DNA of 64,000 nt from Longitalea arenae. Its GTDB lineage: Bacteria > Bacteroidota > Bacteroidia > Chitinophagales > Chitinophagaceae. Positions 33-14,421 of the stretch are shown here, piece by piece. Position 1 is the stretch's first letter, and each line of letters opens with the position of its first letter. Both the position numbers and the translations under genes were made by a program. Where the stretch lies: the NCBI RefSeq assembly GCF_016924755.1, contig NZ_JAFFJX010000012.1, forward strand, positions 62,001-126,000, read 5' to 3'. Below the pieces are notes generated by a model that saw nothing but the letters and a program-made list of their open reading frames with translations, made no database searches and was not told where the DNA came from.

Positions 33-78
33 TTGTTTTCATTAGCACATTGGCAAATTATCGCATCAGCGCATTGCT
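33..78. repeat. Short word repeat (cattagcacattggcaaatt family)
   Basis: Degenerate direct repetition of a word like CATTAGCACATTGGC. The same family recurs at 1459-1495, so mnmD and the glycosylase gene are bracketed by it. No coding signal is seen. Confidence 0.5.
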
Positions 79-740
79 CGTATCATTTCCCTTTTGCCGG
101 GCGGTCCCGGAATTTTCTCCACGCTGAAACCCGCTGCTATCATAGCCCGTCGTACATCTCCCTTGCTACAATAGGTTACAAGGATACCATCCGGCGCCAG
201 CATATTCAGCAATTGCTCAAATACTGTTTTCGTCCATAATTCAGGCTGTGCAGCCGGGGCAAAGGCGTCGTAGAAAATAACATTTACCGGTTCCCCGGGT
301 GTATAGTCGGCGAGTGCGGTTTTCATCTTTTTAAAAGAGAAGAATTTGGTGAGGGTTTGCGTTGAGTTCCATTCAGCGGAATGCAGCGATTCAAATACCG
401 GTTGCCACTCCGCCTGCTCCAGCGCCTCACAATAATTCAGTTGTTGAGTTATAGCAGGCTCCAGGGGAAAGGCTTCTATCGTTTCATATAGTACACTTCG
501 TTCAAGGCGTTTGGCCTCCATGGCCGTCAGCAGGGCATTGAGCCCGGTACCAAAACCCATTTCGAATAGCACGCAGCGGCTGGCAGTTTCATGCCGGCTG
601 AACCAGTACCGCAAGCCGGCTTCGATAAATACATGCAACGACTCCTGTACAGCACCATGTACCGAATGATAGGTGACCTGCCATTCCGGAATACCAATAG
701 TATGAGACCCATCCTTTGTAAGGATCAAATTTCGTTGCAT
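66..740 (-). CDS. mnmD: tRNA 5-methylaminomethyl-2-thiouridine methyltransferase (MnmD-type)
   Basis: SAM-dependent methyltransferase of the MnmC N-terminal/DUF752 family, expected to methylate nm5(s2)U34 of tRNA to mnm5(s2)U in the cytoplasm. The SAM-binding motif reads [13 protein letters not shown], and the family segments [15 protein letters not shown] and [14 protein letters not shown] follow, ending in the typical [12 protein letters not shown]. Length 224 aa fits stand-alone MnmD; the FAD oxidase half of enterobacterial MnmC is absent, as is usual in Bacteroidota. I chose the ATG at 740 ([14 protein letters not shown]); a start at 782 would add 14 residues without family similarity. 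Divergent from the glycosylase gene on the right. Confidence 0.88.
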
Positions 741-828
741 GAGAACAAAATTAACCGGTAAATTGCAAATGAGCCGGAACAAACGCCATCAAAAGAATCA
801 GAGGCAAGCCCGGGCAAACAGCAATCAT

Positions 829-1452
829 ATGGCCAGCGAATACACCTTACACCTTTCAAAAGATAAAAAACTCAAAAAGCTTATAGAGCAGAACGGTGTT
901 TTTAAGCTCAGGAAGCAAAAGAATGTATGCACATGGCTTTGTGCATCTATTATGAGCCAGCAGCTCTCAGTGAAAGTGGCCGACGTGATCTATAGACGCT
1001 TCCTGAACCTGTACCAGGGCAGTGAGCCTACACCGGAGCAGATCGTTGCTACCCCGCCGGAAACCCTGCGCAGCATTGGCCTGTCGAACGCCAAGGTAAG
1101 TTATGTGCTGAATGTAGCGCGCTTTACATTGGAACAGGGTATGGACCACCGTAAGCTGCATAAAATGGATGATGAAGAAGTTATTGAGTACTTGACGCAG
1201 ATCAAAGGAGTAGGCCGCTGGACGGTTGAAATGCTGCTGATCTTTGCGCTGAGCCGCGAAGATGTATTTGCTATAGATGATCTTGGTATTCAGAATGCCA
1301 TGATCGCGCTGTATAAACTCGATCGTACCGATAAAAAACAATTTCGCCAAGACATGCTGCGTATCGCTAAAAAATGGAGCCCTTACCGCTCCTATGCATG
1401 TATGTATCTGTGGCGTTATAAAGACAATGCACCCCCCTTAAAGAAAGCATAG
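829..1452 (+). CDS. DNA-3-methyladenine glycosylase, AlkA-like (HhH-GPD)
   Basis: Base-excision repair glycosylase of the HhH-GPD superfamily, predicted to remove alkylated purines. The helix-hairpin-helix reads LTQIKGVGRWTVEMLLIFAL and is followed by the catalytic Asp region VFAIDDLGIQNAM; SIMSQQLSVKVADVIYRRF is the conserved N-terminal helix of the fold. There is no [4Fe-4S] cysteine cluster, so it is not endonuclease III. I take the start as the ATG at 829 (MASEYTLHL), giving 207 aa; in-frame ATGs at 769 and 739 would add a basic tail and cannot be excluded. Divergently arranged with mnmD. Confidence 0.83.
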   Translation: MASEYTLHLSKDKKLKKLIEQNGVFKLRKQKNVCTWLCASIMSQQLSVKVADVIYRRFLNLYQGSEPTPEQIVATPPETLRSIGLSNAKVSYVLNVARFTLEQGMDHRKLHKMDDEEVIEYLTQIKGVGRWTVEMLLIFALSREDVFAIDDLGIQNAMIALYKLDRTDKKQFRQDMLRIAKKWSPYRSYACMYLWRYKDNAPPLKKA

Positions 1453-1458
1453 CCGGAT

Positions 1459-1495
1459 TCATTAGCCCATTAGCCAATTAGCACATTGCCTATAC
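1459..1495. repeat. Short word repeat (cattagcccattagccaatt family)
   Basis: Three to four degenerate copies of CATTAGCCCATTAGCC between the convergent ends of the glycosylase and reverse transcriptase genes; same family as 33-78. Confidence 0.5.
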
Positions 1496-3004
1496 CACGT
1501 TCCACCAGGGTTTATCGTTATCCTCTTTCTTAGGCGTGCCGTTATTATTTTGAACCGGTGGTGTTTGTTGTTTACTTTTTGCATTGGTAGTTACTGCAAC
1601 CGGATATGGCAGGCGGTTCGTTTGCAACAGGCTCAGGATTTGCTGCTGAAAGGCGGCGCCCTGTGCCGGTTTTACCATCTTTACAAAATTGGCATAACCG
1701 GTTACCGCACTCGCCAGGTTGCCCTGGCCCCACTTAAGGGTATCGGCTTCTTTGGTTTTTAACTGGTGCAGCACGGCGCGGAACTGCCGCAGCTTCTTAC
1801 GCGGGATACCGGCTTTTTCATTGACAACAATGCCCGTTACTTCCTGGCAGGCTCCCTTTCGCATAATACGGATCTTTTCGGGATGCACCGTAAAGCCTTC
1901 ATCGGCCAGTATTTTTTTAATGCGCCACACCAATTGCTGCGCATTGGTAGCGGGGTTATTAAAGGAGAAGGTGATATCATCGGCATACCGGGTGAAACTG
2001 CATTGGTTTTGAACAGCCAGGCCTTGCAGCCTTTTATCCAGCTGATAACAAAGGATATTCGTAATGGCCGGACTGGTTGGTGCTCCCTGCGGTAATACCC
2101 GGTTTCCCTTCTGCACAAAATAATTTTTACCGTCAATGCTCACCTCTTCTGTTACTGCTTCGGTGCATATCAATGCCAGGATCACCGCGATCTTTTCAGA
2201 AAATCCTAACTGTTGTAATAATCCTTTTACCCTTTTATAATGAATAGAAGGGAAGAAATCTTTCACGTCGATATTCACCACAACAGCTTTGCCAATATGC
2301 GGCTGGGCATTGCTGACGATCGACCGTTGCAGGGTAAAACCATGCACAGCCGGGTGAACAGCGATCTTATTGAAAATATTTTCCAGGATCCAGTATTGTA
2401 CCTGTTTCAAGCGGGGCATGGGCGCCGAGATCAATCTTTTGCCGCCCGATTTTTTAGGAATGTAAAATTTGCGGTAGTGCGATACGGTAGATACTTTGCG
2501 GGAGAATGATAAAAAGCGCAGCTCTTTTAAAGGAATGCCAATTGCCTGCGCCAGTTCGTTCTCATTATTAAAAACAGGCAGATGGTGTTTTTGTAAAGCC
2601 GCTACATTGTTATCGGTGTTGTTCAGTCCAACAGATACGCCTTCGCCCAGATAGATGATCTCTTTTTCTTTTTGCTTTTTCCAGGCTTCTGCTTTTTCGA
2701 AACGTTCCTTTTCTTTTTTCTTTTTGTTTTCCTCGCGCCTCAGTTTGGCTTCCGCCATCCGCTTCATGCGCATTTCCTTCAATACGGCTTCCTTATGCTG
2801 GTACTTCCGTTTCTCTTCATAAAGTTTGTTAAGCTCTTTATTAAGCTCAGCTTCTTTTTTGATCAACAGCTCGGGAACGGTAGGCCCTTTGTCGTTTTTA
2901 TTCCAAAAGCCCATTCGCTTCATTTCTTCCAGTACCACTTCGTCTTTCGAAGCTGCGCGGATGCGGTCATATAACTCCTGCCGGATATTTCTGTTATCTG
3001 CCAT
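1490..3004 (-). CDS. Retron reverse transcriptase (type XIII-like)
   Basis: Retron-type reverse transcriptase, 504 aa, expected to copy the msd part of the adjacent RNA into a branched RNA-DNA molecule. Motifs in order: IPKKSGGKR (182-190), the retron-specific NAxxH as NAQPH (232-236), motif A IDVKDFFPSI (245-254), PQGAPTSPAITN (305-316), catalytic YADD (340-343) and the VTG of motif Y (389-391). An unusual N-terminal extension of about 115 residues is very rich in Lys and Glu and predicts a coiled coil; the C-terminal 35 residues are low complexity. The start lies 20 nt after the a2 end of the RNA, the normal retron order. Neighbouring WHSWIM and ARM genes on the same strand suggest type XIII. 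Confidence 0.92.
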   Translation of the reverse strand: MADNRNIRQELYDRIRAASKDEVVLEEMKRMGFWNKNDKGPTVPELLIKKEAELNKELNKLYEEKRKYQHKEAVLKEMRMKRMAEAKLRREENKKKKEKERFEKAEAWKKQKEKEIIYLGEGVSVGLNNTDNNVAALQKHHLPVFNNENELAQAIGIPLKELRFLSFSRKVSTVSHYRKFYIPKKSGGKRLISAPMPRLKQVQYWILENIFNKIAVHPAVHGFTLQRSIVSNAQPHIGKAVVVNIDVKDFFPSIHYKRVKGLLQQLGFSEKIAVILALICTEAVTEEVSIDGKNYFVQKGNRVLPQGAPTSPAITNILCYQLDKRLQGLAVQNQCSFTRYADDITFSFNNPATNAQQLVWRIKKILADEGFTVHPEKIRIMRKGACQEVTGIVVNEKAGIPRKKLRQFRAVLHQLKTKEADTLKWGQGNLASAVTGYANFVKMVKPAQGAAFQQQILSLLQTNRLPYPVAVTTNAKSKQQTPPVQNNNGTPKKEDNDKPWWNVV

Positions 3005-3024
3005 GTTGGGTGAGGAAAAGAGAT

Positions 3025-3287
3025 CATGTTCTGACAGAGGGAAGCATGCTGCCTTCGTGCCTGCTGGTGACCAGATTAATCAACGCAAGGCATATGGGTA
3101 CCATTGTACTATTTAGGCACATAGTGCCAGTACTGAAAATAGTACAATGGTACCTATATGCCATAGTAAAGATTACATTTGGTGATGCATGAAATATTCA
3201 TGTTGCATGAGCGACGAAACATCGCTCTTTCCTTTCGGAAGCAAGGTGCATGTTGTTATTTCCCCTCTGTCAAAGAACACGAAATGT
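3025..3287 (-). ncRNA. Retron msr-msd non-coding RNA
   Basis: Read on the minus strand, the a1 end (3263-3281) and a2 end (3025-3041) pair over 17 bp with one G-U and a 2-nt bulge. Between them lie three msr stem-loops: 3229-3240 (TTCC/GGAA with a GAAA loop), 3209-3227 (GAGCGA/TCGCTC) and 3185-3208 (CATGAA/TTCATG with an extension). The msd hairpin follows, with arms 3089-3114 and 3137-3162: 26 bp with a single G-T(U) position, capped by a small GGCAC-ATA-GTGCC hairpin at 3116-3128. This is the order expected for a retron (a1, msr, msd, a2, RT). Ends are set by the promoter at 3294-3325 and by the a2 pairing; the branching G is not assigned. Confidence 0.85.
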
Positions 3288-3293
3288 GGTTAA

Positions 3294-3325
3294 CAAATAT
3301 AATTTCCTATTTTTTAAATTCTAAA
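3294..3325 (-). promoter_or_regulatory. Promoter of the retron RNA
   Basis: On the minus strand TATATTTG (3294-3301) matches the Bacteroidota -7 consensus TAnnTTTG exactly, and TTTA 20 nt upstream (3322-3325) is one base from the -33 TTTG. Transcription would begin near 3287, about six bases before a1, so the RNA and RT can be transcribed independently of the WHSWIM gene. Confidence 0.6.
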
Positions 3326-3366
3326 TAATTCAGCCTTCTTTTTTTATTACTTATTCACGTTCTTCC

Positions 3367-5028
3367 TCACCTGAAACCTTCGTTTATTCTCGTTTTATTA
3401 AACGACTGGCGAATTGCCAGCATATGTTCACAAGGCCCCTTGTATAATTTATTTTCTATATAGTAACTGCAGTCGCAACTGGCCGATCTTATTTTTTCGT
3501 CGGCATCTATCAGCAATTGTATATTATACGTTTTACGGCTGGCTTTCACAGTTCCGTTTAGCTGTATGCTGCCATCGGCCTGCGGCTGAGCCGTGTATTT
3601 TATTTCCTGCGATTGCAGCAGGGCCGCCGCCATTTCTTCCCTTGGGTTATCGAACCGGAGTTTGTCAAATGGCAATGGCTCGCGGCTCAATTCGCGCAGG
3701 CGGTATACATTGCGGTTAAGGTCATAGATCACCCGGCCGGCCTGCGTATAAGCGCTTAAAGCACCCGACACCTGGGCGGTATCGAGGTTCAGTTGTTTGG
3801 CAAATTGCTGTGAAGTGCCAAACCAGTCTTTTTGAATGGCACTGAAAACTTTTGCTTTGATGGCATCATCTACCTGAAGCCTCGGCGCCAGCAGATCAAA
3901 ATTACCTGCATGACTCCAGTCGTTGGTCGTCCACCCGCTTAAGCCCAGGGTGAAATTCATATCACCCAGGTCAGCTATATAAAAGGAAGGTAAACCGGTG
4001 CCCAGCAAATGAACGGTGAATTTTCTGGCAACGGGGATCAGTCTCTCCATTATCAGTAACCGCCTTCTGCCCCAGGTTCTTACTTCCTGTTTGGTTGGCC
4101 CGGGATAAATACTGCGCGCGCAAATAATTTCCCTGCCCCAGGGCTCCAGGATGATCTTTACCGGTTGACCGGGTTCGAGCACATAGCGCAGAGAGCGCGG
4201 GCCTCTCTTTTCTTTAAAGCGGCGCAGCAATAAACAGATATTGTAAATATCCATCGGGTGCAGGTCGAACTGAATGGTGGGCAGGGTCATGGCGCTGCTC
4301 ACCTGTAAAAATCCACGCACCCAGCTATCGGGCAGATCGATCTTTACTTCCTTGTACTGCTCCTCGTGGCTGGTTTGCACGGTGAACCCGCTGGGATCCA
4401 CTTTCAATTCTGTTTCCTTATAATCGCGGATCTTCTGAAATTCTTCATACAGGGCAGAAGAATAATCAACATTGGTAGTACCGCATTTATAATCGTCTAT
4501 TTCCTTGAACACATTGTAATTGCAGCCCAGCTTTCCATAGGTAGATTCATCCTGGCTAAAGCATTCGAAGAACAGCTCGTCGGGATGAATGGTGATCACG
4601 GGGTCAAGCACGATCCAGGCTTCCCGGTTCTTTTCATACAGGTAATTGAAATATTTTGACCGGGCGTTGTAAAAAGGCGCCAGTAATTTTTCTTTCTGTG
4701 CACGAACTTCGTTCAGTTCCTGCCTTAATTGTTCAATGCGGTTATTGGCCGCATCGGCATCATAACCGGCCATATATTCGGCCAGGAACAAGGCCTCATT
4801 TTGCGCCACCCATTCTTTATAGGCGGTCTTATCTTTCGGTTTAAAGCGCAGATCGCTTATCACCACATCGTGCAGGGCGGAGATCGCTTCGCGAAAGGCG
4901 AGCTTTTTGTGCAGTTTGCCTACAAACCAGGCGCTTTCCCGAAGGGTATCGGGCGCAAACGACAATCCGGTCTTATGCGATGTACTGGTTACAGTACTGT
5001 TACCTGCAAACCTGTAATTAAATAACAT
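3367..5028 (-). CDS. Winged-helix/SWIM zinc-finger protein (retron WHSWIM partner)
   Basis: A 553-aa protein ending in a SWIM zinc finger: the Cys-x-Cys (518, 520) and Cys-x-His (533, 535) pairs are both present (ASCDCSYY, KGPCEHML). Before it, residues of about 390-470 look like a winged helix (TSQQFAKQLNLDTAQVSGAL). The N-terminal two thirds show no enzyme motif that I recognise. SWIM domains bind zinc and usually contact DNA or protein. It lies 85 nt upstream of the retron RNA and downstream of the ARM gene on the same strand, the partner set I recall for type XIII retrons. Its exact role in defence is not readable from sequence. Confidence 0.8.
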   Translation of the reverse strand: MLFNYRFAGNSTVTSTSHKTGLSFAPDTLRESAWFVGKLHKKLAFREAISALHDVVISDLRFKPKDKTAYKEWVAQNEALFLAEYMAGYDADAANNRIEQLRQELNEVRAQKEKLLAPFYNARSKYFNYLYEKNREAWIVLDPVITIHPDELFFECFSQDESTYGKLGCNYNVFKEIDDYKCGTTNVDYSSALYEEFQKIRDYKETELKVDPSGFTVQTSHEEQYKEVKIDLPDSWVRGFLQVSSAMTLPTIQFDLHPMDIYNICLLLRRFKEKRGPRSLRYVLEPGQPVKIILEPWGREIICARSIYPGPTKQEVRTWGRRRLLIMERLIPVARKFTVHLLGTGLPSFYIADLGDMNFTLGLSGWTTNDWSHAGNFDLLAPRLQVDDAIKAKVFSAIQKDWFGTSQQFAKQLNLDTAQVSGALSAYTQAGRVIYDLNRNVYRLRELSREPLPFDKLRFDNPREEMAAALLQSQEIKYTAQPQADGSIQLNGTVKASRKTYNIQLLIDADEKIRSASCDCSYYIENKLYKGPCEHMLAIRQSFNKTRINEGFR

Positions 5029-5079
5029 GAACGATATTTTAGTGCTATGAGTGCTTTGTTTCAGTTGTTCCTCGTTTTA

Positions 5080-5185
5080 ACTTGCGTCACCGGTTACCAG
5101 TTACCAGTCACCGGAAAAGGAAACATTTGATGAGCTGTTTGTAATAAATTCCCGGCAACCGGTGCCCGGTAACCGGTAACTTTAA
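5080..5185. repeat. Inverted pair of CCGGTTACC word repeats
   Basis: Between the ARM and WHSWIM genes, copies of GTTACCAGT/CACCGG (about 5089-5115) face copies of CCGGCAACCGGTGCCCGGTAACC (about 5153-5178) in inverted orientation, so a transcript could fold into an imperfect long hairpin. The same word family recurs at 63800-63890. Confidence 0.55.
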
Positions 5186-5200
5186 ACCACTCACCATTAA

Positions 5201-8200
5201 CTACCTCGTTTCAATTTCTTTAACCAATAACGGTGATTCCACCTCATACAAGGACTTCAGTTGCAGCAAGACCTCAATACATTTGGCCTTGTCGCCGATG
5301 GCGGCTATGGCCGAAATATCGGAAAGCAGGGCGCTGATCACTTTGGCAGCGGCTTCTGATTTGCGCCCCTCGGTTAGGAGGAACTGATACAGCCTGTTCT
5401 TGGCGATCCGACTTTTGTTCACCCGCGTTAATACCGAACGGAAATAAAATTCCAGCGATTGTATTCTCTCCACGTCATCAGCCGCAAACCGCTCCAGGTA
5501 ATTGGTGGCGAACAGCTGCATATTTTCGCTGGGGTGCTGGCTTAGTTTTAATAAATAGGTTAAGCCATTTTCACTGGTGAAGAATTTTGTGATCAGCTCA
5601 CGGCCATAGGCTTCCACATCGGGTTTTACTGAATCTGCCAGGGCGATCAGGGCTTCCGGCGACCAGTCATCAGCGTTAAACTGTTCCCGGAAATACTGCA
5701 TGGCAAACTGGCGGCTATCGCCCCACTTGCTATCGAGTAATTTAACGGCAGCATCTTTTTCATATTTGATCCGGGCGACCTGTTCTTTATAAAATTTCCA
5801 GCACCAGTTACGTACGTTCAGGTTCTCATGACCTCCCAGGGCAATTACCTGCGGTATGGTCAATTGAGAAGGATCAGTATATTTTTCCAGGATGATAATG
5901 CCTACCTGTTGTGCGGCAGTATAATTGCCGTACAGCAGGTTTAAGGCCGTTTCCTTATTGGCATTTTGTAAATAATTGCTCAGTTCATTGCATAAGAGCC
6001 TGCTTACATCATCGTGCAGGCCTTCGCTGCTTTCTTTTCTCAGCAGGAATGGCATTAACAGGTCGGCTGCTTTTTCACCAAAGGTCCTGTCTTTTTGCGC
6101 CAGGCGGTAAACGACCGGCGCTATACCGCGCCGCACCTGCTGGAAAGGAGATGTACAACTGAGTATGATCTCATCCGCATATTTAAACAGGATCTCTTCT
6201 GGCAGATCGTATAATAAAGTAAGTCCAGCCTCGCGTACCGGTGCATAGCTGTGTTGCAGCAAACCGAATAACAAAGAACTGTTCAGGTGCTGCAGGTTGA
6301 GGGATGGCTGTCTGGCTTTTAACAATTGCAAGCCGAACAGCAACACCGGCGGTACATCGTGTTGCAGCAGATCGCTGATTATTGTAAGCGGAACCTCGTT
6401 CAGTTCCTCGTTGAAATGTTCCTTTAAGGCATGGGAAACCCGGTTGATGATCTCCTCATGCTCGCTGGTCATCTCCCTAAATGACATCAGGGCTGCAATG
6501 GATTTGCCAACGACCACTTTTTTTATTTCGTTACCAGGCTTGTTTTTCGCGATCAGGTCCAGTGCCCAGCTGAAAATATCGGCATCCGCCGCAAAGATCA
6601 GGTCTTTGACAAAATCACTTTGCTGCAGGTAATGCTGAAGGTATTGAGTGGTCCATTCTTTTCCTTTCTGGCGCGCATCGGCATGGCGGGAATTCAGCAG
6701 GGCGCTTAGCAGGTCGGCATCGACCTGTGTGCCGGAGAATTTTTCCGTGGTAATGCGAAAGCCAAAAGCCGCCGGTATAGTAAATGGAGACAGGAGGAGC
6801 TTTTTGCAGGCATGTTTGTCGAGCTTTTCCCTGATGGCAGGCCATTGCGGATGGCTGGTTAAACCACCCTGTGCAAATTCATGGATCTCTTCCAGCTGCG
6901 CTTCCATAAGCAGCTGTACATACGACTGCGGCAGTTTATTCCATAAATGCAGAAAGGGTGTTCCATTTTCATTAACCGCCGAACTGGCTGCATCAGCTGT
7001 CTTGTCTGCAGGAGCTTGCGCTGCTTCTTTCTTTTTCCCAAAAAGACCGGTGATCTTCTTTAATAAACCGGAACTATCTTTTTTGCCAGCAGCTGCATTA
7101 TTCTTCGCCCTGGCCGCCAATAACTCATGTTCTGTTTTAATTCGCCAGATATCATTGCGCAGTAAGACCAGTTCGGGATGATCGCCGCTTAATATTTTAT
7201 GCAGAAAAAAAGCATGTGCATTCTGTGGGAACCGGAGCTCCGTTCTAACATAATTGCGGCCATTCCATTTATAATCGGAAGTGGAATAGGCCTCTTTGAT
7301 ATCGGTGTTCTTATAAGAAAGCAGGATACCGGTAGCCAGTTTTACATAATCCAGGCTGTTCACTTGCCCATACATTTGTAAACGGCGGTTCACCCGGTGG
7401 CGCAAATAACGGCGGGTTCTTTGTGAATAAGCAAGCCGGCTGTTCTTTTTGCGCAGTTCTACGTTTGGATTTACATATCCATTCACCTGAACAAAATAAT
7501 TTTCTGCTTGCAGGTTTGTATTGGTGAAGTGGTGAACAAATTGTTCCCGCTCCCGCTCAAAGCGCAGGGCCAGCATGCCCGAAAATTCGAAATCATCTAA
7601 CAGCTCTGCCTGTTTGAAGATGGCGCGGATATGTTTAAAAAAGCCGGCTTTTAAAGGCACTTCCAACAACAGATTTTTCAGCACCGGGCGCATCCATCTC
7701 TTTTCCGTGCCAATGAGATAAAGGGCTTCGAGCCAGTTATATTGCGGTTCCTGCTGTTTGATCCTTTCCATTACAATTGGCTCCAGCGCATCCGCTTTAT
7801 TGGCATCAACAGCCGCTTTTATCGTTTCAGGTAACGATTTCAAAAAGATACCGAGGTGATCCTCCTTTGCAGTTCCATTTAATACCTGCAATAAGCCGGC
7901 GCCTGCTACTTTCCTGATCACCGGCGATGTATGTTCCAGGAAAATTTGTTGTAACGCCGAAGCTGCGGATCCATTGCCACAGCGCGCCAGGGCCCAGGTA
8001 CAACAGTATTGATGAACAAGGTCGTCGGCATTGTTATACAACCTGATTATGTATTGGGCTGCCTCGGGGATCCTGTATTCTCCGGCTTTCCAGATCACCC
8101 GGGAGAGTTTCCAACCGCTGCGGTAAGCAGTGGTATTGCCCTGTACAGCATTATATAAGCGCTGCAGTATTGCTTTGGTACGGCCGGGCGGCATCGACAT

Positions 8201-8512
8201 AAAGTCGGCGCCAATGGTCGTTTCTGTCGTTAATTTGAATGTGCTGGTCTGCGGGGCGGAAGAAACGCCGCTTTCTGAAGCAGTATAGCCTTTTGATAAC
8301 TTTTCATTTTCCACTTCATGAAAAAGTCTTTCTGCTTCGGTGAGCGCAACGGGCACCGGGGTTTTACTGCCTTCTTTTAATTTGGAATACCTTCGACCAT
8401 ACCGGAAGTTCACCACGTATTTATCATTGCCTACATCGCAAAGGTCGATCTCATATACTTTGTCGGAATTCCCTTCTTTAAAATATAGAATACTTTGTTT
8501 AACAAGGCGCAT
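5201..8512 (-). CDS. WGR-domain ARM/HEAT-repeat protein (retron ARM partner)
   Basis: A 1103-aa protein. Residues 1-80 form a WGR domain (SDKVYEIDL, FRYGRRYS, KEGSKTPVPV, EKLSKGY), a nucleic-acid-binding module known from PARPs and MolR. Nearly all the rest is alpha-helical HEAT/ARM-like repeats, broken at about residues 475-520 by a Lys/Ala-rich linker. No catalytic motif is visible. It is the first gene of the minus-strand series WGR-ARM, WHSWIM, retron RNA, RT. By comparison with type XIII retrons it is a candidate effector or regulator held by the reverse transcriptase-msDNA complex; that role is inference. A WGR plus SWIM pairing also occurs in other bacterial conflict systems with MoxR/VWA proteins, but none of those is here. 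Confidence 0.8.
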   Translation of the reverse strand: MRLVKQSILYFKEGNSDKVYEIDLCDVGNDKYVVNFRYGRRYSKLKEGSKTPVPVALTEAERLFHEVENEKLSKGYTASESGVSSAPQTSTFKLTTETTIGADFMSMPPGRTKAILQRLYNAVQGNTTAYRSGWKLSRVIWKAGEYRIPEAAQYIIRLYNNADDLVHQYCCTWALARCGNGSAASALQQIFLEHTSPVIRKVAGAGLLQVLNGTAKEDHLGIFLKSLPETIKAAVDANKADALEPIVMERIKQQEPQYNWLEALYLIGTEKRWMRPVLKNLLLEVPLKAGFFKHIRAIFKQAELLDDFEFSGMLALRFEREREQFVHHFTNTNLQAENYFVQVNGYVNPNVELRKKNSRLAYSQRTRRYLRHRVNRRLQMYGQVNSLDYVKLATGILLSYKNTDIKEAYSTSDYKWNGRNYVRTELRFPQNAHAFFLHKILSGDHPELVLLRNDIWRIKTEHELLAARAKNNAAAGKKDSSGLLKKITGLFGKKKEAAQAPADKTADAASSAVNENGTPFLHLWNKLPQSYVQLLMEAQLEEIHEFAQGGLTSHPQWPAIREKLDKHACKKLLLSPFTIPAAFGFRITTEKFSGTQVDADLLSALLNSRHADARQKGKEWTTQYLQHYLQQSDFVKDLIFAADADIFSWALDLIAKNKPGNEIKKVVVGKSIAALMSFREMTSEHEEIINRVSHALKEHFNEELNEVPLTIISDLLQHDVPPVLLFGLQLLKARQPSLNLQHLNSSLLFGLLQHSYAPVREAGLTLLYDLPEEILFKYADEIILSCTSPFQQVRRGIAPVVYRLAQKDRTFGEKAADLLMPFLLRKESSEGLHDDVSRLLCNELSNYLQNANKETALNLLYGNYTAAQQVGIIILEKYTDPSQLTIPQVIALGGHENLNVRNWCWKFYKEQVARIKYEKDAAVKLLDSKWGDSRQFAMQYFREQFNADDWSPEALIALADSVKPDVEAYGRELITKFFTSENGLTYLLKLSQHPSENMQLFATNYLERFAADDVERIQSLEFYFRSVLTRVNKSRIAKNRLYQFLLTEGRKSEAAAKVISALLSDISAIAAIGDKAKCIEVLLQLKSLYEVESPLLVKEIETR

Positions 8513-8810
8513 GGATAAGCTACAAATTAGGTGCGGGTAAGATAGATAAAAACATTTGATAAAACCAGTCCCCTAATTATATTTAATATGATTAAAAATG
8601 GAAAGTGAAAATACCCATTGCTATTTTATTTTTTGCAGGAAGAAAGTCACAATGGCCCGTCATTCGGGTAAATGGGTACTGTATTATTAATTATAAGCAC
8701 AGGAATTTATACACAGTACGGGGAGATATTAGGGAAGGGAATTTGAATAATTGCCCTATTTTAGGCCCTGCTGCTGGATGAACCTGAAAATCATTACAGG
8801 AGTTGTGAAT
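8513..8810. other. Divergent intergenic region between the retron and Jet-like operons
   Basis: 298 bp that must hold promoters for both divergent gene sets. It contains an 8-bp inverted repeat TACCCATT (8612-8619) / AATGGGTA (8671-8678) and a good ribosome-binding site AGGAG (8798-8802) before the jetA-like start. No perfect TAnnTTTG element was found. Confidence 0.5.
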
Positions 8811-10274
8811 ATGAAACAGGAAGACATTCTGTATTTGCTTACTGCCAATCCTGCCATACAAATGATCCGGTCACGGAGTGCCCGTTGGTATTTACCGTTT
8901 TTATATCATGTATATAAAGAGGAGAACCGCTTTGTTATCGGGGAAGATACGCTCATACAGTTATTATCAGAAACCCTGTCACACCAGGAAGATGGTACCG
9001 AAGATTTTGAAGAAGCTAAAATAGTTTTTGGGGAAGATGAAGAAACCCGAAGCCGCAAATACATTTTGAGCTGGGTACAGAAAAGAATTCTGCAGGACCT
9101 GCAGGATGCGGAAGGTAATATTCAATACCAGTTGAGCGCCCATACTGAAAAAGTGTTTCAGTGGCTGCTTACGCTGCAGGCCCGCAATCATGTTGGAACG
9201 GAAAGCCGGTTTAAATTATTGTTCAACTCATTACAGGATATTGTAGAAAAAACCGAAGACGACCGGCCCAAACGCCTGCAAATGTTAAAAGACCGCCGTG
9301 CAGAGATCGATAAAGAGATCAAGGCCATAGAACTGGGTGTAGCGCCCGATAATTACAGCAATGCGCAGGTGCAGGAAAGGCTCGATCTGTTCACCCGGCT
9401 TTGTTATGAGCTCATCAGCGACTTCAGGGAAGTGGAAGACAATTTCAAACAGATCCACCGCGCGATTGTAGAGCAACATACAAAAGCGGAGCAGAACAAA
9501 GGCGCTATCGTTGGGTTTGCCTTTGCTGCGTATGATGCCCTGCGTAATAGCAACCAGGGCAAAAGCTTCTATTCATTCTGGGACTTCCTGATCTCCCGGG
9601 CGGGTCAGCAGGACTGGAAAGAACTAACCGAACAATTGCTCGATCTGTTAAAAGACCGCGGCATTGAAGCCGATGAGCAGTTCCTGCAAAACATAAAATC
9701 CCTGCTGCTTGAGCAGGGTAAGACCGTGTACGATGCCAACGATAAAATGGCCGAAAAGCTCAGCCGGATCATTTCTGAAAAAGAAATAGCGCGGCACAAA
9801 CGCCTGCGGCAGCAGATCGGCAATATCAAGGAACTGATCTTTGATCTCATGGATGAAGAAGTAAATGGTGGCATTCATTTGGATGAAGGCGTGGAAATAA
9901 AAATGCTGATGGAGCGGAAGCTGCAGTTCGAACAGAAAAAAGCAACCGCATCGGTCAAACAACCAGTGACCGCCACTGAAAAGATCGCCGATCCCGAAAG
10001 GTTCAGCCGCATCATGAACACAAAACATATTGATAAAAAAAGGTTATGGCAAAAAGTGGAGCACGCGTTAAAGGAAAAGCAAACGGCCACCCTCAAAGAA
10101 GTGCTGGAACAGCAGCCGCTTGAGAATGGCATTGCCGAGATTGTAAGTTACTTTGGTTTTTTGCGCGATAAAGCAAGCCGCGTTCAGGTGATCCATAATA
10201 CCAGTGAGCATATTCCGTTAAATGAGGCTGCCACCAAATTTGTAGAAGTACCTTATTTATTATTCAGCAAATAA
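8811..10274 (+). CDS. jetA: JetA-like condensin subunit (DUF3375, MksF/kleisin-type)
   Basis: A 487-aa protein of the DUF3375 family, the kleisin-like subunit of Wadjet type I/MksBEF SMC complexes. It opens with LTANPAIQMIRSRSARWYLPFLYHVY, the family hallmark, followed by winged-helix and long coiled-coil segments. The ATG at 8811 is chosen because AGGAG lies 8 nt upstream and the family similarity starts there; an upstream ATG at 8751 adds 20 unrelated residues. The next gene begins 5 bp after the stop, so translation is probably coupled. It should bridge the JetC ATPase heads and hold JetB. Confidence 0.85.
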   Translation: MKQEDILYLLTANPAIQMIRSRSARWYLPFLYHVYKEENRFVIGEDTLIQLLSETLSHQEDGTEDFEEAKIVFGEDEETRSRKYILSWVQKRILQDLQDAEGNIQYQLSAHTEKVFQWLLTLQARNHVGTESRFKLLFNSLQDIVEKTEDDRPKRLQMLKDRRAEIDKEIKAIELGVAPDNYSNAQVQERLDLFTRLCYELISDFREVEDNFKQIHRAIVEQHTKAEQNKGAIVGFAFAAYDALRNSNQGKSFYSFWDFLISRAGQQDWKELTEQLLDLLKDRGIEADEQFLQNIKSLLLEQGKTVYDANDKMAEKLSRIISEKEIARHKRLRQQIGNIKELIFDLMDEEVNGGIHLDEGVEIKMLMERKLQFEQKKATASVKQPVTATEKIADPERFSRIMNTKHIDKKRLWQKVEHALKEKQTATLKEVLEQQPLENGIAEIVSYFGFLRDKASRVQVIHNTSEHIPLNEAATKFVEVPYLLFSK

Positions 10275-10279
10275 CCGAT

Positions 10280-10921
10280 ATGAGCACTCAGCAAAGAATA
10301 TTACCATATACCTCTGTATTTATAAAACTCCTCAAAGGGCCCGTTGAATATGTAGAGAAAAGCACCTGGGAAAAACTGATCCAATATAAGGTCGAATTGA
10401 CCGGTTTCCTGCTGCAAATGGGCCTGGCCCTTGTACTCGATGAACAGGATGGTTACGCTTACATAAAACATTACCCGTTTGAAGAAGATGAGAACCCGGT
10501 AAGCTGGATCCAAAGAAGGGCGCTTACCTATGAAGAAAGCGTGATGCTGGTATTGCTGCGCGAAATGATGGCAGAATTTGAAGTAGGTGAAGCGACCAAC
10601 CGGGAACTGATAAAAAAACGCCGCGAAATAAAGGAATATGCAGAGCTCTTCTTTAAAGAAAATGCGAGCCGGGTGAAATTCCTAAAAGAAATAGACCGGC
10701 TGATCGATAAGGCGGAAGAAAATGGTTTCCTCGATAAAACAGAGACCAGTGACCTGGCCGATGAACAGAAGTTCCGTATAAAGAAGATCATCAAAGCAAA
10801 GGTCAGCAGCGAAGAGCTGGATCATTTCTACCAGCAATTGGTAAAGATCAAGGAAGAAAAGGATAATAAAGCTGACCAGGAACAATTGGAAGGCCATAAG
10901 GAATACCTAAGGTCTGAATAG
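10280..10921 (+). CDS. jetB: JetB-like condensin subunit (DUF4194, MksE-type)
   Basis: A 213-aa protein of the DUF4194/JetB family, the KITE-like winged-helix dimer of MksBEF/Wadjet complexes. Diagnostic stretches are GFLLQMGLALVLDEQDGYAYIKH, WIQRRALTYEESVMLVLLREMMAEFE and a C-terminal charged helix. It lies 5 bp after jetA and 92 bp before the SMC-like gene. Family assignment rests on size, position and these motifs. Confidence 0.82.
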   Translation: MSTQQRILPYTSVFIKLLKGPVEYVEKSTWEKLIQYKVELTGFLLQMGLALVLDEQDGYAYIKHYPFEEDENPVSWIQRRALTYEESVMLVLLREMMAEFEVGEATNRELIKKRREIKEYAELFFKENASRVKFLKEIDRLIDKAEENGFLDKTETSDLADEQKFRIKKIIKAKVSSEELDHFYQQLVKIKEEKDNKADQEQLEGHKEYLRSE

Positions 10922-11013
10922 TTAGAGGTTCTAAAAGTAAGCCAGGACCTGGCAGGCTTAAATACCAGATCTGACAGGCATGGCGGTTCGATATAAAATC
11001 AGGAATAACATTT

Positions 11014-14000
11014 ATGCAGTTAAGCGTTTTTAGTACTGATAGTCAAAAGAGCGGATTCCGGTTGCAATACATGGAGATCTTTAACTGGGGTACCTTCGAC
11101 GATGTGGTGCATAGCATCAGGCCGATGGGTGAAACCTGTTTACTTACTGGCGCTAACGGAAGCGGTAAGACCACTTTTGTAGATGCCCTGCTTACCCTCA
11201 TCGTTCCCGAGAAAAAGTACCGTTTTTACAACCAGAGCAGTGGTAGTGAAAAAAAGGGCGATCGTACGGAGGAAACCTATGTTATGGGCGGCTACGGCAC
11301 TATGAACAGTGAAAGTACCGGTTCCCTGAAAACCCTGTATCTCCGCGAAAATAAAGAGGAGGCCTACAGCATCCTGCTGGCGCATTTTGCCAATGAAGCG
11401 GATCAGGCTGTCACACTTTTCCAGGTTCGCTATTTCTCCAATGGCGATATGAAAAAGCTTTTCGGTATTGCCCATAAAGCCTTGCGCATCGATGAAGACT
11501 TTAAACCTTTCGACTTGAACGGCCAGTGGAAAAAGACATTGGATCAACGGTACAACAAGGGAAGCCGTAAACAAATTGAATGGTTCGATGCCGCCAGCAA
11601 ATATGCCCAGCAATTAGTGCATGTATTGGGTATGCAGAGCGTGCAGGCCTTGCAGTTGTTCAACCAGACCGTAGGTATTAAGGTGCTGGGTAACCTCGAT
11701 GAATTCATACGCACCCATATGCTGGAGCCCAGGAATATGGAAGAATCTTTCCAGGACCTGAAAAAACACCTGGCTACCCTGCTCGATGCCCGCCGGAATA
11801 TTGAAAAAGCCGAAGAGCAAATAAAGCTGCTACAACCGGTGGAACAACATTTCAAAGCATTTAATACTTTAAAGAATGATATTGATCTAACGGAGCAGTT
11901 GTTACAAACTGCCCGCATCTGGAACAGTTATACCCGCAACAAATTGCTGCACCAGGCCATTGAAGAGAGCGATGCAACCATCAAAGACATTCAGCAAAAA
12001 CAACAGGTTGTAAAACTCACTTATGATCAGTTGCAGGAAGAAGAGCGGGTTATAAAAAATCAGATCGATCAGAACAAGGCAGGGCAGCGGATGCAACAGC
12101 TGGAAAAAGAAGCGCAGGAGCTGGAATTGGAAAAGCAGGAAGCGACCGCTGACCTCGCTTTATTTGCCAGCTGGTGTGAGGAGCTGCATCTGGAAGAAAA
12201 ACTACCTGCCGATGAAGCCGCTTATCACCGCATCGTAAAGGAAGTAAATCGCAAAAGACTCGAGCTGGAGACGAAACAAAGGCTCAATGAAGAAGATGAA
12301 TACAGCGCTAAACGTAATAAAGAGAAGGCGGATGCAGAGAGGAAGAAAGTTGAAGATGAATTGAATAACCTGCTGCAAAGTAAGAACAATATTCCGGCCA
12401 ACCTCATTCATGTGCGCAGGCAGCTCTGCGATGCATTGAATATAGATCAGAATGATCTTCCCTATTGCGGCGAATTGATGCAAGTGAGAAGCGATAGCAT
12501 AGAATGGCAGCCGGCCCTGGAAAAACTGCTGCGGGCATTCTCACTTCGCCTGCTGGTGCCCGATAAATACTACAAAAAAGTGAACAGGTATGTGAACAAT
12601 AACAACCTGGGCATCCGCCTGGTATATGAACACGTTACCGATAATCCGCTGCAGCTGAATCCGCAAAAGGATACAGTTTGTGAAAAGCTGGAATTTCATC
12701 CCGACAACGTCTTAAGCAAATGGGTTGAACAGCAGATCATCATGTACTTCGACCATGTATGCATCAACGACGAAAAGACGCTCGACCGTTATGATAAAGC
12801 CATTACGCTGAACGGGTTGACCAAGAACAAATCGCGGCATGAGAAGGACGACCGAACCGGTAAAAACGATCCGGGCAAGTATGTCATGGGCTGGAACAAT
12901 GAGAAGAAAAGGGAATTCCTGATAAAACGGAGAAACCAGTGGGCCGATCAGTCGGTCAGGGCGAATGAAACACTGGAAAAATGTAAAACCAAATCAGACC
13001 GCCTGCAAAAGCAGTTCTATGCGGTAACCCGTATCCGTGAACATAAGGGTTTTGCCGCCCTGGATATTGCCGGCATTCAACGCAGCATTCACAAATTACA
13101 AGAGCAGATAAACGGCTTGCGCAAGGCCAATAAAGAGCTGGATAACCTGAAAGCGCAGTTGCTCGAGATCCAGAAGAAGAAAGAAGAAGCAGAAGCACAG
13201 CGCGGCCAGTTGCTGATCGACGAAACCCGGTTGAAAGACAGGATGGAACAGTATCACCAGCAACAGGAAGCCTTGCAGCCGCTCCTGCAACATATCGGCG
13301 AAACGGATAAAGACGGCTTGCTGCAGTTCCAGCAACAACAGGCGGCATTGTTATCAAACATAACCCTGGAAAATATTGATGAAATATACGAAGGGCTGAA
13401 GGCGGAAAAGACCCGTTTGCACGAAAAGCAAAAGGATGAGCTGCACCGCGAAGAAACGCAGCTGAACAAATGCATTAACCGCATCAAGAACCCATCTACT
13501 GAACTGAAAAGTAAATTCTCGCCCGAATGGGATGGCGATGTACAACACCTGCCTGAAGATGCAGCTTATGCCAATGAATACATCGATTGGCTGAACAAAC
13601 TGGTGCATGAGAACCTGCCCAAATACAAACGGGATTTTGAAAGTTATATCAATGATACCATTACGTATAAGATCGGTGGATTGAATGAGGAAATGGAAAA
13701 ATGGGAGCGCGATATCAATAACAGCGTTCAACGCCTGAATCAATCGCTGAGTGGGATCAACTTCAACCGACTCCCCGATACTTATATTCAATTGGGAAAA
13801 AGGCCAGTGCCTGCGGGAACCGATATCAAAGAGTTCAGGGGCCGCCTGCTGGATGCATTGCCACAATCGGCGAACTGGCAGCAAAGCAGTTTCGAAGAAA
13901 AATCAAAACATTTTACGCAGAAGGTACAGCCGCTGATCGATGAGCTGGATAAAAACGAGAGCTATCGCAACAAGGTGATGGATGTACGTAACTGGTTCGA

Positions 14001-14421
14001 GTTCTGGGCCGATGAAAAGTTTCGTAATACCGATGAGCTGAAGAAAACCTACCGGCAGATGGGACAATTATCGGGTGGGGAAAAAGCGCAGCTCACCTAT
14101 ACCATTTTGTGCAGCGCCATCGCCTACCAGTTTGGTATTACCCGCGAAGGGAAGAACAGCCGGAGTCTTCGGTTCATTGCGGTGGATGAAAGTTTCAGCA
14201 ACCAGGATGAAGAGAAGGCAACCTACTTGATGGAGCTGTGTAAACAGCTGCACCTGCAATTGCTGGTGGTTACGCCAAGCGATAAGATCCAGATCGTGCA
14301 GAACTTTATTGCCCATGTGCACCTGGTGCAGCGGGTAAATAACCGCCATAGCGTGTTGTACAATATGACCATTAAAGAGTTGAAAGAAAAGATCGAAGAA
14401 GTGAATGCGGTATTATCCTGA
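11014..14421 (+). CDS. jetC: JetC-like SMC ATPase (MksB/MukB type)
   Basis: A 1135-aa SMC-like ATPase, the motor of the JetABC complex, predicted to extrude DNA loops. Walker A is GANGSGKTT (46-54), the ABC signature LSGGEKAQ (1019-1026), and Walker B FIAVDESFSNQDEE (1054-1067), so the ATPase looks intact. Between the head halves are two long coiled coils and a hinge-like region at about 480-650. Third gene of the operon. In Wadjet type I a JetD toprim-like nuclease gene should follow; here the next feature is a terminator-like dyad and a convergent glycosidase gene, so the set is either a JetD-less derivative or a housekeeping MksBEF-type condensin. Confidence 0.88.
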   Translation: MQLSVFSTDSQKSGFRLQYMEIFNWGTFDDVVHSIRPMGETCLLTGANGSGKTTFVDALLTLIVPEKKYRFYNQSSGSEKKGDRTEETYVMGGYGTMNSESTGSLKTLYLRENKEEAYSILLAHFANEADQAVTLFQVRYFSNGDMKKLFGIAHKALRIDEDFKPFDLNGQWKKTLDQRYNKGSRKQIEWFDAASKYAQQLVHVLGMQSVQALQLFNQTVGIKVLGNLDEFIRTHMLEPRNMEESFQDLKKHLATLLDARRNIEKAEEQIKLLQPVEQHFKAFNTLKNDIDLTEQLLQTARIWNSYTRNKLLHQAIEESDATIKDIQQKQQVVKLTYDQLQEEERVIKNQIDQNKAGQRMQQLEKEAQELELEKQEATADLALFASWCEELHLEEKLPADEAAYHRIVKEVNRKRLELETKQRLNEEDEYSAKRNKEKADAERKKVEDELNNLLQSKNNIPANLIHVRRQLCDALNIDQNDLPYCGELMQVRSDSIEWQPALEKLLRAFSLRLLVPDKYYKKVNRYVNNNNLGIRLVYEHVTDNPLQLNPQKDTVCEKLEFHPDNVLSKWVEQQIIMYFDHVCINDEKTLDRYDKAITLNGLTKNKSRHEKDDRTGKNDPGKYVMGWNNEKKREFLIKRRNQWADQSVRANETLEKCKTKSDRLQKQFYAVTRIREHKGFAALDIAGIQRSIHKLQEQINGLRKANKELDNLKAQLLEIQKKKEEAEAQRGQLLIDETRLKDRMEQYHQQQEALQPLLQHIGETDKDGLLQFQQQQAALLSNITLENIDEIYEGLKAEKTRLHEKQKDELHREETQLNKCINRIKNPSTELKSKFSPEWDGDVQHLPEDAAYANEYIDWLNKLVHENLPKYKRDFESYINDTITYKIGGLNEEMEKWERDINNSVQRLNQSLSGINFNRLPDTYIQLGKRPVPAGTDIKEFRGRLLDALPQSANWQQSSFEEKSKHFTQKVQPLIDELDKNESYRNKVMDVRNWFEFWADEKFRNTDELKKTYRQMGQLSGGEKAQLTYTILCSAIAYQFGITREGKNSRSLRFIAVDESFSNQDEEKATYLMELCKQLHLQLLVVTPSDKIQIVQNFIAHVHLVQRVNNRHSVLYNMTIKELKEKIEEVNAVLS

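What the first reader, a model, noticed from the sequence alone, without database searches (positions are those of the whole stretch)
3025..3287. A delimitable msr-msd RNA with a 26-bp msd stem and a1/a2 ends
a1 and a2 pair over 17 bp, three short msr stem-loops follow a1, and the msd is a 26-bp nearly perfect stem capped by GGCAC-ATA-GTGCC. The msd stem has one T in place of C, which is a G-U pair in RNA. Reading the RNA directly gives a usable model for a retron type whose RNA is poorly known.
Basis: seen in the sequence. Interest (0 to 1): 0.85.

Follow-up and report, generated by a model that had tools for sequence, protein, structure and literature searches.

The report
Retron RNA with hypervariable DNA hairpin
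Next to a bacterial reverse transcriptase gene lies the RNA that the enzyme very probably copies into a small DNA hairpin, and comparison with relatives suggests that evolution preserves this hairpin as DNA rather than as RNA, which makes a little-studied type of bacterial immune element (a retron) testable.

Summary
The RNA is real and is the msr-msd of a type XIII retron: WGR/HEAT protein, SWIM protein, RNA, RT, all on the minus strand. A model built from 12 close copies found the RNA in 25 of 31 other type XIII RT loci and in 0 of 24 loci with more distant RTs. Across 64 distinct copies, 81 of 84 pairs show changes on both sides.

On the RNA strand, non-Watson-Crick pairs are G.U in a1/a2 (67 G.U, 21 A.C events) but A.C in the msd stem (4 versus 41). 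A.C on the RNA is G.T on the cDNA, so selection appears to see the DNA copy: comparative evidence for reverse transcription. The same sign in the junction helices suggests an msd of about 3057-3184, larger than the 26-bp stem, though a DNA fold does not form them.

The stem is hypervariable yet TA-rich. 8 of 47 loci with the RNA carry tandem copies. The SWIM protein is predicted to hold a PCNA-like clamp fold (Z 20.9), without sequence support. The retron type is known; no experiment was done.

The parts
3025..3286 (-). msr-msd RNA (262 nt as modelled)
   Evidence: fold z -10.4; CM and covariation
3294..3301 (-). TATATTTG, Bacteroidota-type -7 promoter element 15 nt before the RNA
   Evidence: at -14 or -15 in 16 of 16 closest copies; motif near the RNA start in 26 of 64 copies against 3.8 in shuffles; motif identity recalled
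3261..3281 (-). a1 strand
   Evidence: pairs with 3025-3043; 19 of 19 pairs covary; coordinates
3025..3043 (-). a2 strand
   Evidence: as a1
3241..3246 (-). CCUUGC: inner a1 element CCUU and predicted priming G at 3242
   Evidence: CTTG[CA] in 60 of 64 copies; the base before CTT and the base after CGAAG are Watson-Crick in 37 of 57 copies with both, 25 expected; priming role inferred
3052..3059 (-). CACGAAGG: inner a2 element AAGG and predicted start of the template (about 3056-3057)
   Evidence: CGAAG in 58 of 64 copies; start point inferred by analogy
3229..3240 (-). msr stem-loop 1
   Evidence: gapped in many of the 64 copies
3209..3227 (-). msr stem-loop 2, loop UGUUUCG
   Evidence: 99.0% of cells paired over 64 copies
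3185..3208 (-). msr stem-loop 3
   Evidence: 70-74% paired over 64 copies
3057..3184 (+). predicted msDNA strand (cDNA), about 128 nt, 5' end near 3057
   Evidence: wobble polarity of the stem (p 9e-9) and of junction helices H8/H9 (p 0.008); ends inferred; the DNA fold forms the stem but not H8/H9
3089..3162 (-). 26-position msd stem (3162-3137 / 3114-3089) with cap hairpin 3128-3116; the non-WC pair is 3155/3096
   Evidence: 26 of 26 pairs covary; alignment-free count
3070..3183 (-). junction helices H8 (3183-3180/3073-3070) and H9 (3175-3171/3081-3077) closing the msd
   Evidence: 9 of 9 pairs covary, 95-97% paired; 0 G.U, 8 A.C events
1490..3004 (-). type XIII retron reverse transcriptase, 504 aa, with NAQPH, VTG, YADD
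   Evidence: RT_XIII E 1.1e-186; motifs
3367..5028 (-). SWIM protein: predicted PCNA-like clamp fold (residues 34-371), helix-turn-helix region, SWIM zinc finger
   Evidence: SWIM_XIII E 1.1e-237; model and fold search; Pfam SWIM in 22 of 31 members at E 0.01, the window's own just under the cut-off
5201..8512 (-). WGR domain plus long HEAT/ARM solenoid protein, 1103 aa
   Evidence: WGR_XIII E 0; Pfam WGR in 21 of 26 relatives, not in the window's own at E 0.01; model

Best explanation
It is the msr-msd RNA of a type XIII retron. Proposed working: the RNA starts about 7 nt after its own TATATTTG element (inferred); a1/a2 close it (supported by covariation); the RT recognises the msr, most likely through the UGUUUCG stem-loop (inferred by analogy with Eco1), and primes from the G of CCUUGC (inferred); it copies the msd, probably from about 3057 to about 3184, into cDNA (comparative evidence: wobble polarity, strong for the stem, weaker for the flanking helices); RNase H removes the template (established for retrons). 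The product is an msDNA with a 26-bp DNA hairpin. The SWIM protein (predicted PCNA-like clamp, helix-turn-helix, zinc finger) and the WGR/HEAT protein most likely dock on that hairpin and are held inactive until phage activity disturbs the complex, then harm the host (inferred from other retrons; likelihood about 0.4). Identity as a retron RNA whose msd is reverse transcribed: about 0.93.
For: RT_XIII, SWIM_XIII and WGR_XIII hits in one operon; retron RT motifs. R1 finds the RNA in 25 of 31 type XIII loci outside its training set and in 0 of 24 loci with more distant RTs. Covariation on 64 distinct copies: 91.0% of cells paired against 58.8% shuffled, score 0.740 against 0.183, slid controls at most 0.117; also on a MAFFT alignment not fitted to a model, 28 of 86 pairs. 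Wobble polarity: a1/a2 67 G.U / 21 A.C and SL2 56/2 events, msd stem 4/41, junction 0/8; Fisher p 9e-17 for a1/a2 against the msd helices; alignment-free 34 A.C against 2 G.T in 63 hairpins. The RNA stays with the RT in rearranged operons. Same RNA and operon in an alphaproteobacterium, L079.
Against: No msDNA or transcript was observed. The priming motif is UUGC rather than the common TAGC. No experimental phage defence is known to me for this type. 6 of 31 loci were missed by R1 and 4 of 51 by R2; of these four, L123 and L130 run off the contig, L120 has 368 nt before the RT, and L124 has no such excuse. In the DNA fold of 3057-3186 the 26-bp stem forms but H8/H9 do not, which speaks against the larger msd. 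The wobble test cannot by itself tell cDNA from an antisense RNA, and a positive control on a proven retron was not obtained (uninformative). The clamp fold has no sequence support.
Confidence: 0.85

Rival explanations
1. The RNA works only as RNA, e.g. a structured leader or attenuator that controls the RT gene; nothing is reverse transcribed.
For: It lies directly before the RT start and folds very stably.
Against: The msd stem tolerates A.C (53 cells) but almost no G.U (4 cells), the reverse of an RNA helix, while a1/a2 and SL2 of the same RNA behave as RNA. In L112 and L125 the RNA lies kilobases upstream of the RT.
Confidence: 0.04
2. The stem arms stay complementary by a mutational process (quasi-palindrome correction or hairpin-templated copying) or because the DNA forms a cruciform; covariation there shows no function of RNA or cDNA.
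For: Stems change very fast (64% arm identity in the window's cluster against 91% for the msr) with both arms in step, also between two array copies with 98% identical msr (L118).
Against: A double-stranded DNA process should be strand-symmetric; the mismatches are not (34 A.C to 2 G.T). a1/a2, about 200 nt apart, covary as well. It may still contribute to how both arms change together.
Confidence: 0.05
3. The RT is a DRT-like enzyme that uses the RNA in another way (protein-primed or repetitive cDNA) rather than as a 2'-OH primed retron.
For: Some ncRNA-dependent antiviral RTs make other products (abstracts in the listing); the priming motif is UUGC, not TAGC.
Against: Retron-specific NAXXH and VTG motifs, best family RT_XIII with other retron RT models next, only weaker Drt2/Drt4 matches; a1/a2 closing the RNA with a conserved G at its inner end.
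Confidence: 0.05
4. The complementary strand is transcribed and folds as an antisense RNA, which would also give A.C on the sense strand.
For: The wobble test shows only that the complementary strand is the constrained one.
Against: An RT lies next to it, the flanking helices are sense-strand RNA, and a conserved promoter-like element faces the sense direction. Antisense promoters were not tested.
Confidence: 0.02

Closest known systems
Type XIII retrons (classification of Mestre 2020, paper not held, recalled; PADLOC models RT_XIII, SWIM_XIII, WGR_XIII)
   Same: All three proteins match these models nearly full length and lie in one operon.
   Different: Nothing in this window departs from the type. 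The RNA family, its tandem arrays, its wobble polarity and the clamp fold were worked out here; whether earlier supplements hold an RNA model for the type could not be checked.
Retrons Mx162 / Sa163 / Mx65 of myxobacteria
   Same: RT with an N-terminal extension, large msd; vertical inheritance in a clade (passages of PMC6868368), as the presence in 8 of 9 other congeners suggests here.
   Different: Priming motif CAGC/GAGC there, CUUGC here. No myxobacterial RNA could be compared with the model.
Retron-Eco1 (Ec86)
   Same: RT-msr recognition through a stem with a UUU loop (passage of PMC6868368); here the conserved stem-loop has the loop UGUUUCG.
   Different: Different RT type and accessory genes; the similarity of CCUU-G / CG-AAGG to Eco1's initiation site is recalled.
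Retron-Asa1 / Retron-Squ1 (type II-A)
   Same: Hairpin DNA with a sequence feature (GATC) tied to the trigger, a phage adenine methyltransferase (passages of PMC12548924).
   Different: Here the enriched feature is the TA step, with no known trigger.

Membership tests
Retron | RT with retron-specific region X (NAXXH) and region Y (VTG) and YADD | tested here: met
   NAQPH 232, VTG 389, YADD 340; VTG and YADD defined in PMC6868368 passages, NAXXH recalled
Retron | ncRNA by the RT gene, closed by complementary a1/a2 | tested here: met
   19 of 19 a1/a2 pairs with changes on both sides, 87.5-89.8% paired
Retron | Conserved priming G at the inner end of a1 (usually TAGC) | tested here: inconclusive
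   CTTG[CA] in 60 of 64 copies with a covarying inner a1/a2 base, but the word is not TAGC or a listed variant
Retron | msd hairpin that is reverse transcribed | tested here: inconclusive
   Strong but indirect support: wobble polarity points to the cDNA strand; no DNA was observed and no positive control was obtained
Retron | msDNA with a 2'-5' branched linkage | not testable with these tools
   needs bench work
Type XIII retron | RT_XIII with SWIM_XIII and WGR_XIII partners | tested here: met
   in relatives, tblastn with the window's proteins finds SWIM in 48 and WGR in 42 of 50 loci (L006-L015, L079, L094-L132)
Type XIII retron | Anti-phage defence | not testable with these tools
   inferred from other retrons
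PCNA (sliding clamp) family, for the SWIM protein | PCNA fold | tested here: met
   on a predicted model only (mean pLDDT 75.1): Z 20.9, rmsd 2.7-2.8 A over 230-233 residues; Foldseek E 4.1e-9
PCNA (sliding clamp) family, for the SWIM protein | Sequence relationship to PCNA | tested here: inconclusive
   no PCNA family among the 25 Pfam families shown (of 41) at E up to 10; hhalign against one PCNA sequence probability 0.9%; PCNA_C not found at this locus
PCNA (sliding clamp) family, for the SWIM protein | Ring assembly round DNA | not tested
   no multimer prediction was made
Wadjet type I, for the neighbouring JetABC genes | JetD nuclease subunit | tested here: not met
   no PADLOC hit in the next four ORFs of 180 aa or more; JetD_C PF09983 has 0 matches in the whole genome

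The most novel reading that the evidence does not exclude
Type XIII retrons are clamp-based sensors with a repertoire of DNA hairpins: the RT turns one to four tandem templates into msDNAs whose hypervariable, TA-rich stems are selected as DNA, and a PCNA-fold SWIM protein is seated on the 26-bp stem as a sliding clamp sits on replicating DNA, so that phage attack on clamps, DNA ends or stem sequence releases the WGR/HEAT partner. A bacterial immune element would then have recruited a PCNA-like clamp, with fast-evolving DNA stems as bait.
Probability: 0.2. Interest if true: 0.85.

Novelty: new member of a known kind. Interest (0 to 1): 0.6.

Why it matters
It delimits an RNA (no Rfam hit at gathering threshold) for a retron type whose mechanism I found nowhere described, with predicted priming site, template ends and product, so that an msDNA gel can decide. 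The wobble-polarity test may be a general, sequence-only way to tell a reverse-transcribed hairpin from an RNA hairpin and to find the ends of an msd. Tandem templates with different stems under one RT (search) and a predicted PCNA-like fold in a retron partner are leads I did not find described in the open-licence library held, and each can be tested directly.

Tried and rejected
Dyad symmetry inside the msd stems (operator-like site): not above dinucleotide shuffles, 3.11 against 3.03, z 0.6.

Host-word avoidance as the cause of TA-rich stems: only weak (4-mer Spearman -0.17, p 0.04; mean host log-odds z -4.2) and not general (dinucleotide correlation p 0.26); left unexplained. Against dinucleotide shuffles, which keep the TA step, only part of the tetramer enrichment remains (ACTA z 4.9, GTAC 2.9, GGTA 2.0), so the step itself is the main signal.

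Wobble test on other RTs as a positive control: the best hairpins upstream of 22 more distant RTs gave 6 A.C and 3 G.T; most are too short to be msd stems; uninformative (L040 too short, L042 not included).

DNA fold of the predicted msDNA: the stem forms (-30.8 kcal/mol, z -6.8) but the junction helices H8/H9 do not appear. I keep the larger msd as probable because of the mismatch polarity of H8/H9, not as shown.

Rfam: no hit at gathering. At E up to 10 four of six matches are miRNA precursor families on the stem, and all are far below gathering: a long stem, rejected.

Helix H3 of the covariance model (GCA/UGC) shows no polarity (9 G.U, 11 A.C events) and competes with the inner a1/a2 element; I regard it as a modelling artefact.

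PCNA by sequence: none. A query of phage records with PCNA found nothing. WGR/HEAT protein: only generic HEAT/ARM matches, best Z 12.6 with rmsd near 20 A; no function read from it. Full-length search of the operon DNA in phage records: no match.

The 24 'more distant RT' loci (L016-L019, L023-L042) were not typed one by one; L040 has almost no DNA upstream of its RT. Rows dropped: 5 identical rows of 69; 15 of 61 distinct stems as near-copies before the k-mer test; in the alignment-free count, repeats of a stem and hairpins scoring under 12 among 73 copies; 7 of 64 copies without both inner motifs. In one search, 12 of 58 matches are the opposite strand of training loci, from the stem's self-complementarity. 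L131 was brought in by the RNA search itself and is no independent test. R2's training set (A3) contains many of the loci it then finds; R1's 25 of 31 is the independent count. A -33 promoter element was not tested.

Wider phyla (Pseudomonadota, Nitrospirota) could not be centred, so distribution outside Bacteroidota rests on one plasmid record.

Full report
WHAT IS THERE. The minus strand of window 1490-8512 carries, in order, a WGR/HEAT protein (8512-5201), a SWIM zinc-finger protein (5028-3367), the RNA in question (3286-3025) and a reverse transcriptase (3004-1490). PADLOC models name them WGR_XIII (E 0), SWIM_XIII (1.1e-237) and RT_XIII (1.1e-186). The RT has the retron motifs NAQPH, VTG and YADD. 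This is a type XIII retron. The own genome has one strong RT_XIII match (four others are weak, E 1.8e-16 or more), one SWIM_XIII and one place with the RNA. The nearest named relatives are Longitalea luteola and Niastella species; the RNA is present in 8 of 9 other genomes of the genus, the ninth being 61% complete.

CHECK OF THE OBSERVATION. The fold is as described: -104.4 kcal/mol, z -10.4, with a1/a2, three msr stem-loops, a 26-position stem and its cap. One statement is wrong in an instructive way. The lone imperfect pair of the stem is T3155/G3096 when read on the plus strand; on the transcribed strand it is A.C, not G.U, and in a DNA copy of that RNA it is G.T.

RELATIVES. Twelve close copies (window, L006-L015, L061) align over 272 columns; the msr is almost invariant while the msd stem changes with compensation. 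A covariance model from these 12 (R1) was searched over 67 sources. Outside its training set it hit 25 of 31 loci with a strong RT_XIII match and 0 of 24 loci with more distant RTs (L016-L019, L023-L042; not typed one by one, and L040 has almost no upstream DNA). A second model from 22 copies (R2) hit 47 of 51 type XIII loci (window, L006-L015, L079, L094-L132), again 0 of those 24. Misses: L123 and L130, whose contigs end before the place; L120, with 368 nt before the RT; and L124, where neither SWIM nor WGR was found either. L079 is a plasmid record of the alphaproteobacterium Methylobacterium bullatum (RT 45.6% identical) with the same gene order and the RNA at E 1.8e-22. In L110, L126, L127 and L131 the operon order is RNA-RT-WGR-SWIM, so the RNA moves with the RT. 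In L112 and L125, where no WGR match was found, the RNA lies about 3 kb upstream of SWIM.

COVARIATION. On 64 distinct copies, 91.0% of 5061 cells form standard pairs (shuffled 58.8%), 81 of 84 pairs have a change on both sides, covariation score 0.740 (shuffled 0.183, slid at most 0.117). Msd stem: 26 of 26 pairs, 95.0% paired. a1/a2: 19 of 19 pairs. SL2: 99.0% paired. Two junction helices that close the msd, H8 and H9: 9 of 9 pairs, 95-97%. This alignment was fitted to the model and so leans towards it; the MAFFT alignment of the 12 close copies gives 28 of 86 predicted pairs with two-sided changes.

WHICH STRAND IS THE CONSTRAINED ONE. In an RNA helix the tolerated intermediate is G.U. If the helix matters as cDNA, the tolerated intermediate is G.T in the DNA, which reads A.C on the RNA strand. 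Counted on the RNA strand: a1/a2 99 G.U and 21 A.C cells, SL2 90 and 2, msd stem 4 and 53, junction helices 0 and 10. Reduced to events over 38 sequence clusters: a1/a2 67/21 (p 9e-7), SL2 56/2, msd stem 4/41 (p 9e-9), junction 0/8 (p 0.008); apex helix 1/4, SL3 26/15 and H3 9/11 are not significant. Fisher test of a1/a2 against stem, apex and junction together: p 9e-17. SL2 contains one nearly invariant U.G pair, so a1/a2 is the better control. In the stem columns away from the apex, 22 A.C against 3 G.U cells remain. A count without any alignment, on 63 distinct best hairpins, gives 34 A.C and 2 G.T. A mutational bias of the transcribed strand would act on a1/a2 and stem alike, so it does not explain the switch. 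I conclude that the stem is selected as the complementary strand, most simply as the RT product; an antisense RNA is the formal alternative. The same sign in H8/H9 suggests that both sides of these helices lie inside the copied region, so that the msd runs from about 3184 to about 3057. Against this, the DNA fold of 3057-3186 forms the stem (z -6.8) but not H8/H9. Events within one cluster or between related clusters are not fully independent, so the p-values are optimistic.

PRIMING AND RECOGNITION (inferred). CTTG[CA] occurs in 60 of 64 copies near the 5' end and CGAAG in 58 of 64 near the 3' end; the base before CTT and the base after CGAAG are Watson-Crick in 37 of 57 copies with both (25 expected, 0 of 2000 shuffles as high). 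CCUU/AAGG is therefore probably an inner a1/a2 helix and the G after CCUU (3242) the likely priming G. The review passages say the priming G sits at the inner end of a1, usually in TAGC, and that an RT-Eco1 fragment binds a stem with a UUU loop (PMC6868368, passages). The conserved UGUUUCG stem-loop is the natural counterpart. A TAnnTTTG element lies 14-15 nt before the RNA in the 16 copies most like the window's; a match near the start is found in 26 of 64 copies overall (3.8 expected in shuffles; 423 of 10400 random windows). That this is the Bacteroidota -7 element is recalled.

HYPERVARIABLE, TA-RICH STEMS. In the window's cluster of 16 the msr averages 91% pairwise identity and the stem arms 64%. 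In 46 mutually dissimilar stems the step TA occurs 123 times against 56 expected (0 of 1000 shuffles as high) and TA is in 44 of 46; GGTA, ACTA and GTAC are the most enriched tetramers against single-base shuffles, while GA/TC and AA/TT are depleted. TA odds are 2.24 in stems and on average 0.79 (maximum 0.997) in 45 flanks. The cause is not known; internal dyads are not enriched and host-word avoidance explains it at best in part. Some of the 46 stems are still related by descent.

TANDEM TEMPLATES. 8 of the 47 loci with the RNA hold two or more copies by the model, 22 copies in all; by eye L113, L114, L115 and L116 hold four, L118 and L119 three. In L118 two copies share 98% of the msr but 50% of each stem arm; this is not general, since in L115 (first two copies) and L117 msr and stems differ alike. 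One RT with several templates of different stem sequence was not described in the papers I could search.

THE PARTNERS. An AlphaFold2 model of the SWIM protein from 31 relatives (mean pLDDT 75.1; residues 1-31 and some loops under 50) matches PCNA over residues 34-371: VIA-align Z 20.9, rmsd 2.7-2.8 A, 230-233 residues, 8-11% identity in the four top rows; Foldseek best E 4.1e-9. A helix-turn-helix region (Pfam HTH_65 in 1 of 31 members at E 0.01, 7 of 31 at E up to 10) and a SWIM finger (22 of 31) follow. No sequence method supports PCNA, so this is a predicted fold only. The WGR protein is a WGR domain (Pfam in 21 of 26 relatives, not in the window's own at E 0.01) on a long HEAT/ARM solenoid (mean pLDDT 85.3) with generic matches only. 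In relatives the window's SWIM finds a match in 48 and WGR in 42 of 50 loci.

HOW IT MOST LIKELY WORKS. Shown by comparison: closed RNA, cDNA-strand polarity of the hairpin, RNA tied to the RT, partners kept together. Inferred: promoter, priming G, template ends, recognition through SL2. Inferred from other retrons, about 0.4: the msDNA-RT complex restrains the SWIM and WGR proteins, which bind the DNA hairpin, and phage action on that complex releases a harmful activity. PMC12548924 (passages) describes the general scheme and, for two type II-A retrons, a GATC motif in the RNA or msDNA and a phage methyltransferase as trigger.

NOVELTY. The retron type is known and the locus is an ordinary member. 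New here, as far as I could check, are the wobble-polarity evidence, the probable larger msd, the tandem arrays and the predicted clamp fold. PADLOC holds msr-msd covariance models (PMC9252829, passages); whether one covers type XIII could not be seen. The one paper with 'retron' and 'type XIII' only lists the system in a Variovorax strain (PMC11953036, one passage).

Noticed in passing
window 8751-14421 (+): JetA, JetB and JetC genes lie divergently next to the retron, also in L006, L008, L009 and L010 (JetA and JetB in L007, where the locus ends), but no JetD is found: no PADLOC hit in the next four ORFs of 180 aa or more and no JetD_C match in the whole genome. It is not a complete Wadjet; more like a MksBEF-type condensin without nuclease (recalled).
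   Followed up: partly
window 3370-5028 (-): The SWIM protein of type XIII retrons is predicted to contain a PCNA-like sliding-clamp fold, with a helical insert at residues 68-133; no sequence support.
   Followed up: partly
L113, L114, L115, L116, L117, L118, L119, L125: Two to four tandem msr-msd copies per retron, often with more alike msr than msd stems.
   Followed up: partly
L112, L125 (and L123, L130): A divergent branch with SWIM 31-36% identical to the window's and no WGR match; in L112 and L125 the RNA lies about 3 kb upstream of SWIM. PADLOC's HEAT-ARM_XIII may be the third partner there (not tested).
   Followed up: no
L067, L069, L070, L071 and the G503 match: The RT match region holds in-frame stops as reported by the search; decay or assembly error not decided.
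   Followed up: no
window 739-1449 (+) and 69-782 (-): HhH-GPD DNA glycosylase and MnmC2-like methyltransferase genes border the retron on the other side; the order is kept in L006 and L008 and, with a gap, in L007.
   Followed up: no
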